From IMG/VR virus record IMGVR_UViG_3300035034_001226, positions 41,193 through 105,192 of that record: 64,000 nucleotides of DNA; one strand, written 5' to 3'. Each line of letters opens with the position of its first letter. The first letter of the stretch is position 1. This document shows, in pieces, positions 2,485 through 46,828 of the stretch. Position numbers and translations under genes: made by a program. A model generated the notes under the pieces. The model saw only the letters and a program-made list of their open reading frames with translations. It did not search any database and was not told the DNA's origin. Source of the DNA: a virus.

Positions 2485-3615
2485 TTATTGGTACTCTGTT
2501 GCCTTAGAGCTTTTACGTAGAAGATAATCCTCACTGACACTCTTCAACAATACTCTGCCAATAGTGTCATCTCTGCGCTCTTTCAATGGTCGTACAACAA
2601 GACCCTCTCTGATGTTTACTTCTTTACCAGAGACAGTTTCACGGCCATCTGTGTGATCCCGTAATGCACCCTCTGAGAATGGTCCACGATAAAGTTCGGG
2701 AACAATTCCAATATGGGCACCATCAAATACGTTATTCATATATCCAATTTGACCTATCATATCATCATATCCCATATAATCACCCTGAAAATTATCATGT
2801 GACATATAGATATCAAAAACTCGGAATCCCTTTTTATTACTAGAATCATATTTCAGGTCTTGAACACCATAAATCTCACCTAATATATAAACATTAGGTA
2901 TACCACATAATAGCCGTAAGGTCTGAAGATACTTACCAATACCCAATTCATAGAACGTCTTAACATAAACATTATCTTTATTTACATCACCCATCTGGAA
3001 TGCAAATCCCTTTCCACTGTGACCTTTACTGGTAACAATATAGTCATGACCTACCATTCCAAAGCAAGCCCAAGTACCATGAATTTTTTCGGTAAATACA
3101 ACATCTTCACCGTCTTTAATTACATTAGGATGTGACTTGATATTCTCAATATCATATTTCAAGGTGGAACCAAATGGTGGAGTCCATAGAGCACCATTCA
3201 TACTGGTTGGAATTTCAGGTACATACTTTTCAATACCTAGAAACTCGGCAACATCATCACCGCAAAATACTTCTTTTAGTTGATCATTCTCACCTTCCAA
3301 TAATCCATCATCATTCAATGGTAAAATTAGCCCCTGTGATAGATTACCACGCAATTTAATTGCTTTAATTCTATTACCACGGGAACCGTTAAGCTTGCCC
3401 TTATCAGAATCTTCATCCCAAAATCCAAGTTTCACCCCCAGCCATTTAGGAATAAGGGATGCTTCAGGTATATATACTACCATATCACCTGATGTATAAC
3501 TGCCCCGTGAGGCAATTGCATTGTATCCATCAATTCGAACCATTTCCAAATTATCAGAGTTCTCTGCTGGAAATACATCTAATACTTTTTTTACTAAAAC
3601 TTTAAAATCACTCAT
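2485..3615 (-). CDS. RNA ligase, Rnl5/DraRnl-like
   Basis: This is a 376-aa ATP-dependent RNA ligase. About 150 N-terminal residues look like an OB-type domain. The adenylyltransferase motifs follow: motif I TEKIHGTW (nucleotidyl Lys about residue 178), motif III ILGEIYG, motif IV REGLVVRP and motif V LLKSVS. An N-terminal OB domain before the catalytic core is the layout of the Deinococcus Rnl5 family, known to seal nicked RNA ends. With the second RNA ligase at 4.4 kb and the CCA-adding enzyme it probably repairs cleaved tRNAs or other RNA breaks. An AAGGAATATTA sequence precedes the ATG. Confidence 0.85.
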   Translation of the reverse strand: MSDFKVLVKKVLDVFPAENSDNLEMVRIDGYNAIASRGSYTSGDMVVYIPEASLIPKWLGVKLGFWDEDSDKGKLNGSRGNRIKAIKLRGNLSQGLILPLNDDGLLEGENDQLKEVFCGDDVAEFLGIEKYVPEIPTSMNGALWTPPFGSTLKYDIENIKSHPNVIKDGEDVVFTEKIHGTWACFGMVGHDYIVTSKGHSGKGFAFQMGDVNKDNVYVKTFYELGIGKYLQTLRLLCGIPNVYILGEIYGVQDLKYDSSNKKGFRVFDIYMSHDNFQGDYMGYDDMIGQIGYMNNVFDGAHIGIVPELYRGPFSEGALRDHTDGRETVSGKEVNIREGLVVRPLKERRDDTIGRVLLKSVSEDYLLRKSSKATEYQ

Positions 3616-5111: not shown

Positions 5112-5189
5112 TGGTAGCAAGGGGTGGATTTGAACCACCGATTTCCAGTTTATGAAACTGATGAGATAGCCAGACTTCTCTACCCTGCT
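5112..5189 (-). tRNA. tRNA-Met(CAT), initiator-like
   Basis: The anticodon loop is TTCATAA, with encoded CCA and T-loop GTTCAAAT. The D-arm reads GAGAAGTCTGGCTATCTC, resembling initiator tRNAs, but position 1:72 is an A-T pair. A second, more classical initiator-like gene lies at 14115-14191. Confidence 0.85.
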
Positions 5190-5257
5190 ATAATAAATGA
5201 ACTCCGACCACCCACATTTATAAACAAGGAGGTCGAGGTGGTCGAAGTTCTACTCAA

Positions 5258-5866
5258 CTATTGTTTAAGTGTTGATGAAGATGAAACAATATCTGCCAAT
5301 TTCTTATCAGCCTCTTCACTTGATGCACCACTACGAAAGCTAGTTGCATACACACTAACAGCATCGTAAGAATCTGAAATGCCCCTTGAAGTCCCCCCAA
5401 ATGAAAATGCTTTACCCATATCCATTCCTAGACTCTTAGCTTCACTCAATGACTTTTCATCTGATCCAATGAAAATAAATTCCCATTTATTTTCTCGCAT
5501 TTCAGAAATTAAACTACTTATGGCAGAGGCATTTTTCCATTCAGTACTTCTATTCTCCTGACCATCCGTAACAACTACAAATATTTTCTTACCTGTAACA
5601 TTAGAATCCTTAACTGCATTTGCAGTTCTCCCAATAGCATCAAATAATGCTGTCATACCCCTTGGGACAAGTTTATATTCTTTAAATTCCTTGATATTTA
5701 CATTTTCAGCTAACATATCATAATTTTCATCAAACTCAACAAAGGTTAGTTCCGCCTCACCAATTTCTTTTTGCTCATTAATAAATGAGTTTACACCACC
5801 TTCAGCATCCGATTTTATTAAATCCATTGACCCTGATCTATCCACAACTACTACAATTTTATCCAT
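5258..5866 (-). CDS. vWA-domain protein
   Basis: The 202-aa protein is a single von Willebrand A domain. It shows the MIDAS motif DRSGSM at residues 9-14, the MIDAS threonine in GMTALFDA and the downstream Asp in VVVTDGQENRS. Such domains bind a metal and partner proteins; stand-alone cytosolic vWA proteins often work with AAA ATPases, and one AAA ATPase lies at 44.3 kb. The C-terminus is Ser/Ala rich. It stops in TAG and would be extended 24 residues by readthrough. Confidence 0.85.
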   Translation of the reverse strand: MDKIVVVVDRSGSMDLIKSDAEGGVNSFINEQKEIGEAELTFVEFDENYDMLAENVNIKEFKEYKLVPRGMTALFDAIGRTANAVKDSNVTGKKIFVVVTDGQENRSTEWKNASAISSLISEMRENKWEFIFIGSDEKSLSEAKSLGMDMGKAFSFGGTSRGISDSYDAVSVYATSFRSGASSEEADKKLADIVSSSSTLKQ

Positions 5867-12643: not shown

Positions 12644-13717
12644 TTATAATGATTTACTCATTATGTCTATTCTAATTTCATCCAACCTACGGCCAATACC
12701 AGCACCTACTAGTTGATTCTTTTCCTTTTCTGATAGATACTCAAAGTTAACTTTAGATGATTCATTAATAGCATTCAGTATTGCATCAGTGTCCTCCAAT
12801 CGGAGCATCCAAAGTTGAGAAACTTTAAGATATGTTTCCAACAAACTAGTATCCTGCCAAAGTCTGTATACCTTACACAAATTAAACAATTCAATAGGGT
12901 CACTAAAGTCTATTCTATTTGCAGTAACACCGAAACTTATAGCTTCACTAATTTCAGTTGGTATAGATTGCTTCTCAATAAAGTTATCAGCTATATCTCT
13001 TCCAACATCCATAAATGTTCCCATCCATCTTTCAATTTCAGTTGCGTTTGATACATTGAAAAGCATCATTCGCTGGGTTAGGTCACTGAATGCGATTGAT
13101 GCAAGGTCAAATATGTCATGCATTGCATCAACATCTTTCAGAATTCTGAAAAAGTTCTGGGGATTTGGTTCCATCATTGCGCGTGAAACTTCCTTCCACA
13201 CCCTTTCACTAATAAGGTGCTTCACTTCACCAAAATCAACCATCGCTTTCATCATATCCATAGTTGAAGGGTCAACAGTAAACCCATACCGTGCTGAAAA
13301 TCTAGCAACCCTAAGAATCCTAACCGGATCGTCGGAAAATGCACTAGATACATGACGAAGTATACCATTTTTAATATCATCACGTCCACCGAAAAAATCA
13401 AAGATTTCACCAGTTTCCAAATCCTGTGCAATGGCATTAATAGTCAAATCTCTACGCTTAAGATCATCTTCAAGTGTTACGTATGGTGTGTGATTGGTAG
13501 TGAAGCCAGTATATCCATTACCAGATTTACGCTCCGTTCGTGCGAGTGCATACTCTTCACCATCTTTCAAAAACACTGGGAATGTTTGACTTACTTGATG
13601 GTAGCCAAGAGAGTACATTTCTTCTGGTGTCGAGCCAACTACGACATAATCAATATCTTGGGGTTCTATACCCATGATTTCATCTCGTACTGCTCCACCA
13701 ACTTTATAAATTTTCAT
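12644..13717 (-). CDS. cca: CCA-adding tRNA nucleotidyltransferase
   Basis: 357 aa from ATG 13717 (MKIYKVGGAVRDEIMG), chosen over a longer frame because GGTGATAG precedes it. Class II nucleotidyltransferase marks are all present: GGAVRD, the catalytic DID of QDIDYVVV, RRDLTINAIA and DPVRILRVARFSARYG. The length fits the bacterial Cca head domain without the HD phosphohydrolase tail. It adds or repairs CCA ends. That matters here because several tRNAs (Thr-GGT, Cys at 33.3 kb, the interrupted one at 34.5 kb) do not encode CCA. A weak TTGACA promoter lies upstream. Confidence 0.9.
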   Translation of the reverse strand: MKIYKVGGAVRDEIMGIEPQDIDYVVVGSTPEEMYSLGYHQVSQTFPVFLKDGEEYALARTERKSGNGYTGFTTNHTPYVTLEDDLKRRDLTINAIAQDLETGEIFDFFGGRDDIKNGILRHVSSAFSDDPVRILRVARFSARYGFTVDPSTMDMMKAMVDFGEVKHLISERVWKEVSRAMMEPNPQNFFRILKDVDAMHDIFDLASIAFSDLTQRMMLFNVSNATEIERWMGTFMDVGRDIADNFIEKQSIPTEISEAISFGVTANRIDFSDPIELFNLCKVYRLWQDTSLLETYLKVSQLWMLRLEDTDAILNAINESSKVNFEYLSEKEKNQLVGAGIGRRLDEIRIDIMSKSL

Positions 13718-13892
13718 ATCTATCACCTTGATTAAACTATTAATACATTTAAGCATGTATTATTGTTGATGTCAAGGTTTATTTTAACCTATTAATATTT
13801 AGTAGCCTTGCCTTTAATCGCAAATGTTACACAAGTCCTCCGAATCGAACGGTACGGAGGACATCCTAGCCCACCCGCTGCACCAGCAAACG
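13718..13892. other. Intergenic region with a GC-rich hairpin
   Basis: It holds a TTGACA-containing weak promoter near 13765 for the cca gene and an 8-bp perfect hairpin at 13835-13862 (GTCCTCCG/CGGAGGAC) whose loop contains a T-loop-like TTCGATT on the minus strand. I could not build a full tRNA around it; it may be a tRNA remnant or a transcription-related hairpin. Confidence 0.4.
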
Positions 13893-23114: not shown

Positions 23115-23333
23115 TTAATAACCTTCAGGTCTTGCTGGTATCTCTTGCCCTACATCATACTGCCAATGTGTAACATCGCCAGTTAGAAAACCTCTGTTGC
23201 CACCAAAACAGTTGCCACCATAGTATTGCCCTTTACTTACACCTGTAAATTCAAAGAAGTAAAACACATCTGAATCAACTTCAGGTAGGTTTTTTTCGTC
23301 ATACATATTAAATACATTCCAATTATCTGCCAT
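23115..23333 (-). CDS. Hypothetical protein, 72 aa
   Basis: Aromatic and Gly-rich: DSDVFYFFEFTGVSKGQYYGG, then THWQYDVGQEIPARPEGY. This is typical of small phage proteins with a single beta sheet. No family recognised. Confidence 0.55.
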   Translation of the reverse strand: MADNWNVFNMYDEKNLPEVDSDVFYFFEFTGVSKGQYYGGNCFGGNRGFLTGDVTHWQYDVGQEIPARPEGY

Positions 23334-23358
23334 ATTTTACCCCATAAATTATATTGTT

Positions 23359-23434
23359 TGGTATCCCTACACGGACTTGAACCGAGATTTTAACCTTGAA
23401 AGGGTTACGTCCTAACCAATTAGACGATAGGGAC
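23359..23434 (-). tRNA. tRNA-Glu(TTC)
   Basis: Anticodon loop CTTTCAA in stem TAACC/GGTTA, T-loop GTTCAAGT, A73, encoded CCA. Confidence 0.9.
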
Positions 23435-23439
23435 ATTGA

Positions 23440-24356
23440 ATGTTTATTTATTACTAGGAGGGTTAATAATAAACGCTGAGATTATACGTTTTAGTAGTGA
23501 CCTTTAATTCCCGTACCATATCCCTTGCGAGGATAGTTAAGAACTTATCCATATAAACGCTATTAAGCTGCCTATATATTCACTAATGCTGCCTTGTTAA
23601 AGTGTGGCGTTTCACTTGTCATAACATACTACTCGTCCAGTCTTATTACGTCTGGTCACCCAGTTAAACTCCGCTAAAAGTCTACGTACTCTTTCTAAAC
23701 AAATATCATCAGCTTGCGGCCTTTGACACACTCCATTCCAAATGGTGGAGTATTAAGCATTTTTAGTATGCTACCGGAATGGTCTTTGCGTTTTAATCAA
23801 TAGTAGGACTTGAACCTACATACGATTCCTTTTGAGGGAATTGCCTAATCCAATTTGGCTATATTGTAACCTACTAAGATGTGCCATTCCTGTCGCTACA
23901 TATCTTGTTAGATACGTAATACAACACACCTCCTATCTTTCGTCTTGCGAACTACTCGATATCCTTTCACGATTATGGCTCTTACACCAATATCGTTCAA
24001 AATGATAGCTGCCCTTTCCTGCGAAAGATCGGACTAATCCATCTACACATTAGAATCCCACTATGGTTAGGTTGATTTGTTCAGCTTGGCTATCACACCA
24101 ATTCATGTCTCGCGGAGCCGTCTGACACTATCCTTTCGGACTAAAACCCTAACTTACAGTTTATCGCTGCCTTAACAACGCGGCTAACTTAGAACCGAAG
24201 TTCATATTGCCTATCCTGTGCTTGCATATATAGACCCTTACGGGTGATGGCGTGTAGGACGCTCATCTTTTTAAGTGTTACCACTTATTGTCTTATTGAG
24301 GATATGCCCCCAAATTCTCATGTTACATAAATGTTATTATTTATGTCTTAAAACTT
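23440..24356 (-). ncRNA. Giant structured non-coding RNA, about 0.9 kb
   Basis: No supportable ORF occupies this stretch, which is strikingly GC-richer than the genome. A strong promoter (24363-24390) fires into it on the minus strand. Read on that strand it contains many compact hairpins capped by stable tetraloops: AAGTG-GTAA-CACTT, ACCC-GTAA-GGGT, TCC-GAAA-GGA, GAAC-TTCG-GTTC, and CTTTC-GCAG-GAAAG. Those loops are GNRA/UUCG only on the minus strand, fixing the strand. A tRNA-like fold is embedded at 23796-23868. Large size, phage origin, embedded tRNA and tRNA neighbours recall GOLLD-type RNAs. Family membership is unproven. Its 3' end is undetermined and may join tRNA-Glu. Confidence 0.7.
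23796..23868 (-). tRNA. tRNA-like domain inside the giant RNA, Leu(CAA)-like
   Basis: A perfect anticodon stem ATTCC/GGAAT holds loop CTCAAAA (CAA). T-arm GTAGG/CCTAC with TTCAAGT is intact and the D-arm GCC/GGC is short. The acceptor has two mismatches and CCA is not encoded. It may be a functional tRNA released from the longer RNA or a structural domain of it. Confidence 0.5.
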
Positions 24357-24362
24357 GCGATT

Positions 24363-24390
24363 ATTATATCATAAAATGTTTTATTGTCAA
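24363..24390 (-). promoter_or_regulatory. Strong extended -10 promoter of the giant RNA
   Basis: Perfect TTGACA, 16-nt spacer, TGA, perfect TATAAT on the minus strand, just downstream of tRNA-Ile(GAT). Confidence 0.85.
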
Positions 24391-24416
24391 CTATTTTTTT
24401 TTGAAATAATTTTACT

Positions 24417-24493
24417 TGGTGGACGTGGTAGGATTTGAACCTACGGATACCTCCTTATCAGAGAGGCTGCTTAGACCACTTGCATACACGTCC
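24417..24493 (-). tRNA. tRNA-Ile(GAT)
   Basis: Anticodon loop CTGATAA in stem CCTCT/GGAGG, GGACGTG acceptor, A73, encoded CCA. Confidence 0.9.
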
Positions 24494-24504
24494 ATAATTT
24501 ATTA

Positions 24505-24575
24505 ACCTATATTGCAAGATTCGAACTTGCGTCTGTGGGTTCGTCCACTGTTCTATCCACTGAACTATTTATAGG
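24505..24575 (-). tRNA. Degenerate tRNA-like element
   Basis: D-arm GTTCAGTGGATAGAAC and T-arm GCAAG/CTTGC with TTCGAAT are intact. The anticodon arm GTGG-ACGAAC-CCAC has a six-base loop lacking T33; the anticodon could be ACG (Arg). No CCA encoded. Confidence 0.4.
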
Positions 24576-46754: not shown

Positions 46755-46828
46755 TGGTCGCTCCAAGGGGAATCGAACCCCTGTCGTAAGTTTTAGAGAC
46801 TCTTGACAACCAACATGTCAATAGAGCG
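46755..46828 (-). tRNA. Amber suppressor tRNA(CTA)
   Basis: Acceptor CGCTCTA/TGGAGCG, D-arm GACA/TGTC, T-arm AGGGG/CCCCT with TTCGATT, A73, CCA. The anticodon stem is AGAGT/ACTTA with one mismatch and loop CTCTAAA, so the anticodon is CUA, which reads UAG. The amino-acid identity is unclear: a C1-G72 pair with A73 does not match one standard set. Confidence 0.75.

What the first reader, a model, noticed from the sequence alone, without database searches (positions are those of the whole stretch)
23440..24390. Giant structured RNA (~0.9 kb) with its own promoter and an embedded tRNA-like domain
A GC-rich, ORF-free block in an AT-rich genome; a perfect extended -10 promoter at its edge; at least five hairpins capped by GNRA or UUCG tetraloops that make sense only on the minus strand; a tRNA-like fold inside. 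Known: GOLLD and ROOL are large phage or prophage RNAs, GOLLD often near or containing tRNAs. This could be a member or a new class.
Basis: partly seen in the sequence, partly recalled or inferred. Interest (0 to 1): 0.88.

Follow-up and report, generated by a model that had tools for sequence, protein, structure and literature searches.

The report
GOLLD cage RNA with disabled tRNA
This stretch of a large bacterial virus makes a GOLLD RNA, a known kind of giant RNA that assembles into hollow cages; the tRNA-like piece inside it is real, but in this virus and nearly all its relatives it has lost the end that carries an amino acid, so it is probably not a working tRNA.

Summary
Minus strand 24356-23473 is a GOLLD RNA: Rfam RF02032 matches over its whole model at 23932-23473 (156.1 bits, gathering 150, E 8e-42). 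It has its own consensus promoter (TTGACA-16-TATAAT with TG; 24390-24363). Relatives show compensatory changes in 80 of 112 predicted pairs of the 3' domain and 48 of 62 of the 5' domain. It is a member of a known class, in a relative of jumbo phages XacN1/CM1/RAS14; tRNAs in the GOLLD linker are already reported. Not found reported: (1) In 62 distinct linker tRNAs, the D, anticodon, T and lower acceptor stems are kept, but acceptor pairs 1-3 pair no better than shuffled, and CCA is encoded in 1 of 62, against 988 of 1029 free tRNAs nearby. They are probably not chargeable, contrary to the idea of stored working tRNAs. (2) The linker changes faster than the cage: cores 99.4% identical can carry linkers only 72% identical. 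(3) Three types of relative hold circularly permuted tRNAs (T-arm, CCA, then 5' half) with perfect acceptors, joined to the cage at the variable arm. Best guess: a tRNA-shaped bait inside the cage, perhaps for tRNA-cutting defence enzymes. The role is inferred.

The parts
24363..24390 (-). sigma-70 promoter TTGACA-N16-TATAAT with extended -10 (TG)
   Evidence: 12 of 12 consensus positions. 24 of 69 related GOLLD loci score 11-12 in the same upstream zone (mostly 450-467 nt before the 3' domain); 0 of 345 shuffles reach 11.
23933..24356 (-). 5' domain of the GOLLD RNA (predicted start about 24356)
   Evidence: Outside the Rfam model. Alignment of 23 relatives: 62 predicted pairs, 48 with a compensatory change.
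23473..23932 (-). conserved 3' domain of GOLLD RNA (RF02032, model 1-416)
   Evidence: 156.1 bits, E 8e-42; 112 predicted pairs, 80 with a compensatory change in 22 relatives.
23790..23877 (-). GOLLD linker (88 nt), between GCACATC and GCAAAGAC
   Evidence: Falls in the unpaired filler of the Rfam model. In the solved GOLLD env-38 the linker is disordered and lies inside the cage (PMC12286853).
23795..23868 (-). tRNA-like domain in the linker (anticodon CAA); acceptor pairs 1-72 and 2-71 mismatched, no CCA
   Evidence: ARAGORN; RF00005 49.2 bits over model 3-68; parsed acceptor TACAATA/TATTGAT with pairs 1 and 2 broken; at most 62% identical to any free tRNA of this window.
24192..24203 (-). 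UUCG-capped hairpin GAACTTCGGTTC in the 5' domain
   Evidence: sequence
23359..23434 (-). tRNA-Glu(UUC) 38 nt downstream of the GOLLD 3' end; cleavage at its 5' end by RNase P could set the RNA's 3' side (inference)
   Evidence: no intrinsic terminator found just downstream of the GOLLD 3' end
24417..24493 (-). tRNA-Ile(GAU) upstream of the promoter (tRNA-island context)

Best explanation
Minus-strand 24356-23473 encodes a GOLLD RNA of about 0.88 kb made from its own strong promoter during infection. As in the solved GOLLD, copies would assemble into a hollow multimeric cage with the linker facing inward. The linker carries a tRNA-shaped domain that keeps the anticodon arm, the elbow and the lower acceptor stem but lacks a normal acceptor end. 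It is therefore most likely not a translating tRNA but a fixed tRNA mimic, many copies per cage, swapped quickly between relatives. My best guess for its job is bait that binds proteins recognising tRNA bodies or anticodon arms, such as host tRNA-cutting defence enzymes. Shown here: identity, promoter sequence, covariation, tRNA geometry, loss of upper acceptor pairing and encoded CCA. Inferred: cage formation in this member, expression, non-charging, bait function. My separate estimates: GOLLD identity 0.98; linker domain not a working tRNA 0.8; bait for tRNA-targeting proteins 0.3.
For: RF02032 full-length hit. Compensatory changes in both domains. Promoter conserved in relatives. Among linker tRNA domains, acceptor pairs 1-3 are at 38-57%, no better than shuffled partners, while pairs 4-7 are at 91-97% with 0 of 2000 shuffles reaching that; the anticodon stem is 98-100% paired with many pair types; U33 is 100% and A37 93%. 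Allowing bulges does not rescue the top pairs (60% against 56% shuffled). CCA is encoded in 1 of 62 linker domains against 988 of 1029 free tRNAs in the same contigs. Linkers differ where cores are near-identical: 72% against 99.4% for L300/L295. Position 34 varies (G, U, C, A before UU) in one lineage, which a charged tRNA could hardly tolerate. Solved cage with inward linker: PMC12286853. [quoted passage not shown] Asn(GUU), Lys(UUU) and Thr(UGU) anticodons make up 36 of 58 linker domains.
Against: No expression, assembly or binding data for this RNA. The anticodon bias is carried mostly by one lineage: clustering at 80% gives 14 clusters with mixed anticodons, so it is not independent support for a PARIS-type target. 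The window's own anticodon is CAA, outside that set. One relative (L007) has an intact acceptor and CCA, and the three permuted types have perfect acceptors, so the acceptor is not lost everywhere. Many GOLLDs have no tRNA in the linker (also XacN1 and CM1), so the cage must do something without it. A CCA-adding enzyme is encoded by this phage, so absence of encoded CCA alone would not prevent charging.
Confidence: 0.6

Rival explanations
1. The linker domain is a genuine phage tRNA stored in or released from the cage: it is cut out, given CCA by the phage-encoded nucleotidyltransferase, and used in translation (the cage as tRNA store).
For: Recognisable cloverleaf with anticodon and T-loop signature; tRNA-rich phage with a CCA-adding enzyme; encapsulated or covalently linked tRNA proposed in PMC12286853; L007 keeps a full acceptor and CCA.
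Against: Top three acceptor pairs show no pairing constraint and CCA is almost never encoded, unlike the free tRNAs around it. The wobble base switches between Asn and Lys forms within one lineage.
Confidence: 0.12
2. The tRNA-like domain is only structural filler: a compact, readily available fold that occupies the linker and helps folding or spacing of the cage, with no partner.
For: Many GOLLDs have an A-rich or short linker instead, so a tRNA is dispensable; phages with tRNA islands have tRNA pieces at hand.
Against: The anticodon loop (U33 100%, purine 37 97%), D-loop GG and T-loop are as conserved as in free tRNAs, more than a filler needs; the permuted tRNAs keep the whole tRNA fold although joined at another point.
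Confidence: 0.25
3. The domain lets the GOLLD cage bind ribosomes through a tRNA site, holding or shielding them late in infection.
For: Ribosomes are reported to bind GOLLD in pull-downs (cited in PMC12286853); the anticodon arm is intact.
Against: The linker points into the cage in the solved structure; many GOLLDs lack the tRNA domain.
Confidence: 0.15
4. A dead insertion: a tRNA gene landed in the GOLLD linker and is decaying neutrally.
For: Top acceptor pairs and CCA are lost; mycobacterial case described as a pseudo-tRNA (PMC6582537).
Against: Acceptor pairs 4-7 and the anticodon and T stems covary strongly across 58 domains; decay would hit all stems alike.
Confidence: 0.08

Closest known systems
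GOLLD RNA (Rfam RF02032; env-38 structure, Kretsch et al. 2025, PMC12286853)
   Same: Full-length 3' domain above gathering score, variable 5' domain, inward linker position, phage and tRNA-island context, length (about 0.88 kb against 833 nt).
   Different: The linker is 88 nt and holds a tRNA-like domain instead of about 42 disordered nucleotides.
GOLLD of mycobacterial tRNA arrays (PMC6582537)
   Same: GOLLD among many tRNA genes with a predicted pseudo-tRNA inside.
   Different: Here the phage is a distant XacN1-type jumbo phage relative, and the tRNA domain belongs to a set whose stems covary, so it is not simply a pseudogene.
Circularly permuted tRNA genes of algae and archaea (Soma 2014, PMC3978253)
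   Same: The relatives L292/L380, L340 and L032/L329/L347 encode the 3' half with CCA before the 5' half, with an intervening loop.
   Different: In phage; inside a large RNA; joined at the variable arm with an AAGU/ACUU stem. The review's table covers algae and archaea only. The window's own linker tRNA is not permuted.
tmRNA
   Same: A tRNA-like domain fused into a larger phage or bacterial RNA.
   Different: The domain keeps D and anticodon arms; no Rfam tmRNA hit above threshold in this window; a tag reading frame was not looked for.
ROOL RNA
   Same: Phage nanocage RNA near tRNA islands.
   Different: No Rfam match here.

Membership tests
GOLLD (RF02032) | Conserved 3' domain scored by the covariance model above the gathering score | tested here: met
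   156.1 bits against 150, model 1-416
GOLLD (RF02032) | Covarying secondary structure of the 3' domain | tested here: met
   80 of 112 predicted pairs with compensatory changes
GOLLD (RF02032) | Less conserved but structured 5' domain, total about 0.8-0.9 kb | tested here: met
   48 of 62 predicted pairs with compensatory changes; promoter places the start about 424 nt upstream of the 3' domain
GOLLD (RF02032) | Phage or prophage, often near tRNAs | tested here: met
   38 ARAGORN tRNAs in the window; portal and helicase nearest to XacN1/CM1/RAS14
GOLLD (RF02032) | Assembles into a multimeric cage | not testable with these tools
   known for env-38 (PMC12286853); needs cryo-EM or mass photometry
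GOLLD (RF02032) | Transcribed, rising during lysis | not testable with these tools
   needs RNA-seq of infected cells
functional tRNA (linker domain) | Cloverleaf with D, anticodon and T arms | tested here: met
functional tRNA (linker domain) | Intact 7-bp acceptor stem | tested here: not met
   pairs 1-72 and 2-71 mismatched in the window; pairs 1-3 unconstrained across relatives
functional tRNA (linker domain) | CCA end | tested here: inconclusive
   not encoded, while 36 of 37 free tRNAs of this window encode it; addition after transcription cannot be excluded
ROOL / OLE / HEARO | Rfam covariance match | tested here: not met
   no match at gathering score in the window nor at E<=1 over 23300-24520

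The most novel reading that the evidence does not exclude
GOLLD cages of this subfamily carry inward-facing tRNA mimics as exchangeable bait. In the permuted members the tRNA hangs from the cage by its variable arm, with a free, complete CCA acceptor that RNase P could mature, giving a chargeable tRNA covalently tied to a cage RNA. To my knowledge these would be the first circularly permuted tRNA genes in phages or bacteria.
Probability: 0.25. Interest if true: 0.85.

Novelty: new variant of a known kind. Interest (0 to 1): 0.55.

Why it matters
GOLLD cages have a structure but no known function. The family-wide rule found here (tRNA body kept, charging end lost, fast swapping) argues against storage of working tRNAs and points to recognition of the tRNA body or anticodon arm, which can be tested with linker swaps. 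The permuted tRNAs in related phages are a second, independent handle: the tRNA fold was kept while its point of attachment moved. They also suggest that circularly permuted tRNA genes exist in bacterial viruses.

Tried and rejected
BLASTN of the locus against phage and plasmid records finds only partial matches or none. The 3'-end motif scan of genome contigs gave almost only chance hits. A scan for CACTTAAAN{0,2}CGCAAAGAC gave chance hits apart from known loci. A relaxed search for further permuted types found none. Searching doubled linkers with ARAGORN missed the permuted tRNAs because the variable arm is replaced by the cage RNA; a dedicated scan and rotation found them. That strict scan misses the L032 type because its position 37 is not a purine, and one of its hits (L269) is best read as neighbouring ordinary tRNAs. 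Considered and dropped: origin of the window's linker tRNA by recent copying of its own tRNA-Leu(CAA) or another free tRNA (at most 62% identity). The anticodon bias as proof of a PARIS target was rejected because of shared descent. ROOL, OLE and HEARO were excluded by Rfam.

Full report
IDENTITY. cmscan of the window finds one hit to RF02032 (GOLLD), 23932-23473 minus strand, all 416 model positions, 156.1 bits against a gathering score of 150, E 8e-42. The same hit is the only one in the 105,192-base virus record that holds the window; 14 control genomes give none. The embedded tRNA falls in the unpaired filler of the model, which corresponds to the linker that is disordered and faces the lumen in the solved 14-mer (PMC12286853). 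Upstream, at 24390-24363, is a 12/12 promoter. With a start near 24356 the RNA is about 0.88 kb, the size of env-38 GOLLD (833 nt).

RELATIVES AND STRUCTURE. Pattern scans of viral contigs by conserved GOLLD motifs gave about 55 loci by the 3'-end motif and 88 by a motif of the window's own subfamily. Aligning 22-23 of them, RNAalifold predicts 112 pairs in the 3' domain, 80 with at least one compensatory change, and 62 in the 5' domain, 48 with one. Consensus promoters scoring 11-12 of 12 lie in the same upstream zone in 24 of 69 relatives and in 0 of 345 shuffles.

THE LINKER tRNA. Of 72 distinct subfamily linkers, 62 parse as a normally ordered cloverleaf by a parser that does not score the acceptor stem. 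The acceptor pairs from the top are present in 39, 56, 50, 92, 92, 92 and 92%; free tRNAs in the same contigs, parsed the same way, give 89-95% throughout (those were first called by ARAGORN, a bias in their favour). CCA is encoded in 1 of 62 against 988 of 1029. In the 58 class-I cases pairs 1-3 pair no better than with shuffled partners, even allowing bulges, whereas pairs 4-7, the anticodon stem and the T stem are kept with several pair types. The 5' side of the upper acceptor overlaps the cage's own conserved flank GTAGGTT (48 of 58 have GTAGGT). Grouping linkers at 80% identity leaves 14 clusters: one large lineage and 13 small ones. Lack of encoded CCA holds in 13 of 14 clusters (from the listing); the anticodon bias to NUU (44 of 58) comes mostly from the large lineage and is not independent. 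The loss of pairs 2 and 3 is also clearest in that lineage; pair 1 is broken in most of the small clusters too (listing). The window's domain fits: pairs 1-72 and 2-71 broken, no CCA, anticodon CAA, at most 62% identical to any free tRNA of the window, of which 36 of 37 encode CCA. In two named phages, MD18 and DSS3_MAL1, the same linker domain is annotated as tRNA-Arg; read by eye from the sequence, MD18's second and third acceptor pairs are also broken and CCA is absent.

TURNOVER. For close pairs, linkers differ more than the cage: L300/L295 core 99.4% and linker 72% (Asn against Lys anticodon), L318/L262 94.6% and 67%, L301/L358 99.7% and 86%. The tRNA domain is an exchangeable or fast-evolving module.

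PERMUTED tRNAs. In six loci of three sequence types the order inside the linker is T-arm, 3' acceptor strand, discriminator, CCA, loop, 5' acceptor strand, D-arm, anticodon arm: L292 (with L380, another metagenome), L340, and L032/L329/L347. Acceptor stems are perfect 7 bp. A strict scan of 6.7 Mb (both strands) finds this order in GOLLD linkers and once elsewhere (L269, probably neighbouring ordinary tRNAs), and never in 20 Mb of shuffled sequence. Rotated into normal order, all three types are called as complete tRNAs by ARAGORN. The entry and exit strands carry AAGU and ACUU, which would close a variable-arm stem (sequence inspection). Replicate contigs agree over 6-8 kb at 99.97-99.99%, so an assembly artefact is unlikely for two of the three types; L340 was seen once. 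Rfam accepts L292, L380 and L340 as GOLLD over the cut-off (188-199 bits); the L032 type scores 100 bits, below the cut-off. In a tree of the 3' cores a well-supported 20-row set (98/85) holds the window and all four permuted rows; the label needs three changes, two forced by well-supported branches, though several long branches make the deeper order unsure. I found no report of permuted tRNAs in GOLLD in the held papers; Weinberg 2009 was not among the papers found and Morgado 2020 is not held, so novelty is provisional.

PHAGE. Portal and helicase are closest to Xanthomonas phage XacN1 (49%, 46% identity) and Stenotrophomonas phages CM1 and RAS14. XacN1 has two GOLLD copies and CM1 one, none with a tRNA-sized linker. 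The 105-kb record is thus probably a fragment of a jumbo phage (inference); the host is unknown.

MECHANISM. Established for the class by others: cage assembly, inward linker, dispensability in one prophage (as cited in PMC7567579). Shown here: the tRNA body is kept, the charging end is not. Inferred: the cage presents many tRNA mimics to the lumen, acting on something that reads tRNA bodies. A defence nuclease is a plausible partner because phage tRNAs counter such enzymes (PMC12409363, PMC10264068, PMC11555353), but nothing here identifies one. In the permuted forms the acceptor is free, so there the tRNA might still be matured and charged while tied to the cage.

VERDICT. The window's element is a new member; the subfamily rule and the permuted tRNAs in its relatives are the new part, and are why I rate it a variant rather than only a further member.

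Noticed in passing
window 46755-46828 (-): A free tRNA with anticodon CUA (called tRNA-Pyl by ARAGORN) and encoded CCA: a likely amber-suppressor tRNA of the phage. The GOLLD linker tRNA of relative L046 also has anticodon CUA.
   Followed up: no
window 12644-13756 (-) and 2485-3615 (-): The phage encodes a tRNA nucleotidyltransferase (CCA-adding enzyme, PHROG 2244) and an RNA ligase (PHROG 968), so tRNA repair functions accompany the tRNA island.
   Followed up: partly
L396 1599-1672 (Phaeobacter phage MD18), L397 1592-1667 (phage DSS3_MAL1): GenBank annotates a 'tRNA-Arg' that is the GOLLD linker domain, with broken upper acceptor pairs and no CCA; the GOLLD itself is not annotated.
   Followed up: partly
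XacN1 AP018399.1 38570-38983 and 357365-357778 (L399, L401): Two equal-scoring GOLLD copies in Xanthomonas phage XacN1, presumably in terminal repeats.
   Followed up: no
L002 about 5126-5592 (Sinorhizobium phage Phosso): GOLLD with a degraded tRNA-Arg(UCU)-like linker in a 469-kb phage; not annotated.
   Followed up: partly
L032 8130-8650: Downstream of the permuted-tRNA GOLLD lie several odd stretches with long closing stems or tRNA-like sequence, perhaps further unusual or intron-bearing tRNAs.
   Followed up: no
L397 2080-2488 (phage DSS3_MAL1): A phage-encoded tmRNA is annotated just downstream of the GOLLD.
   Followed up: no
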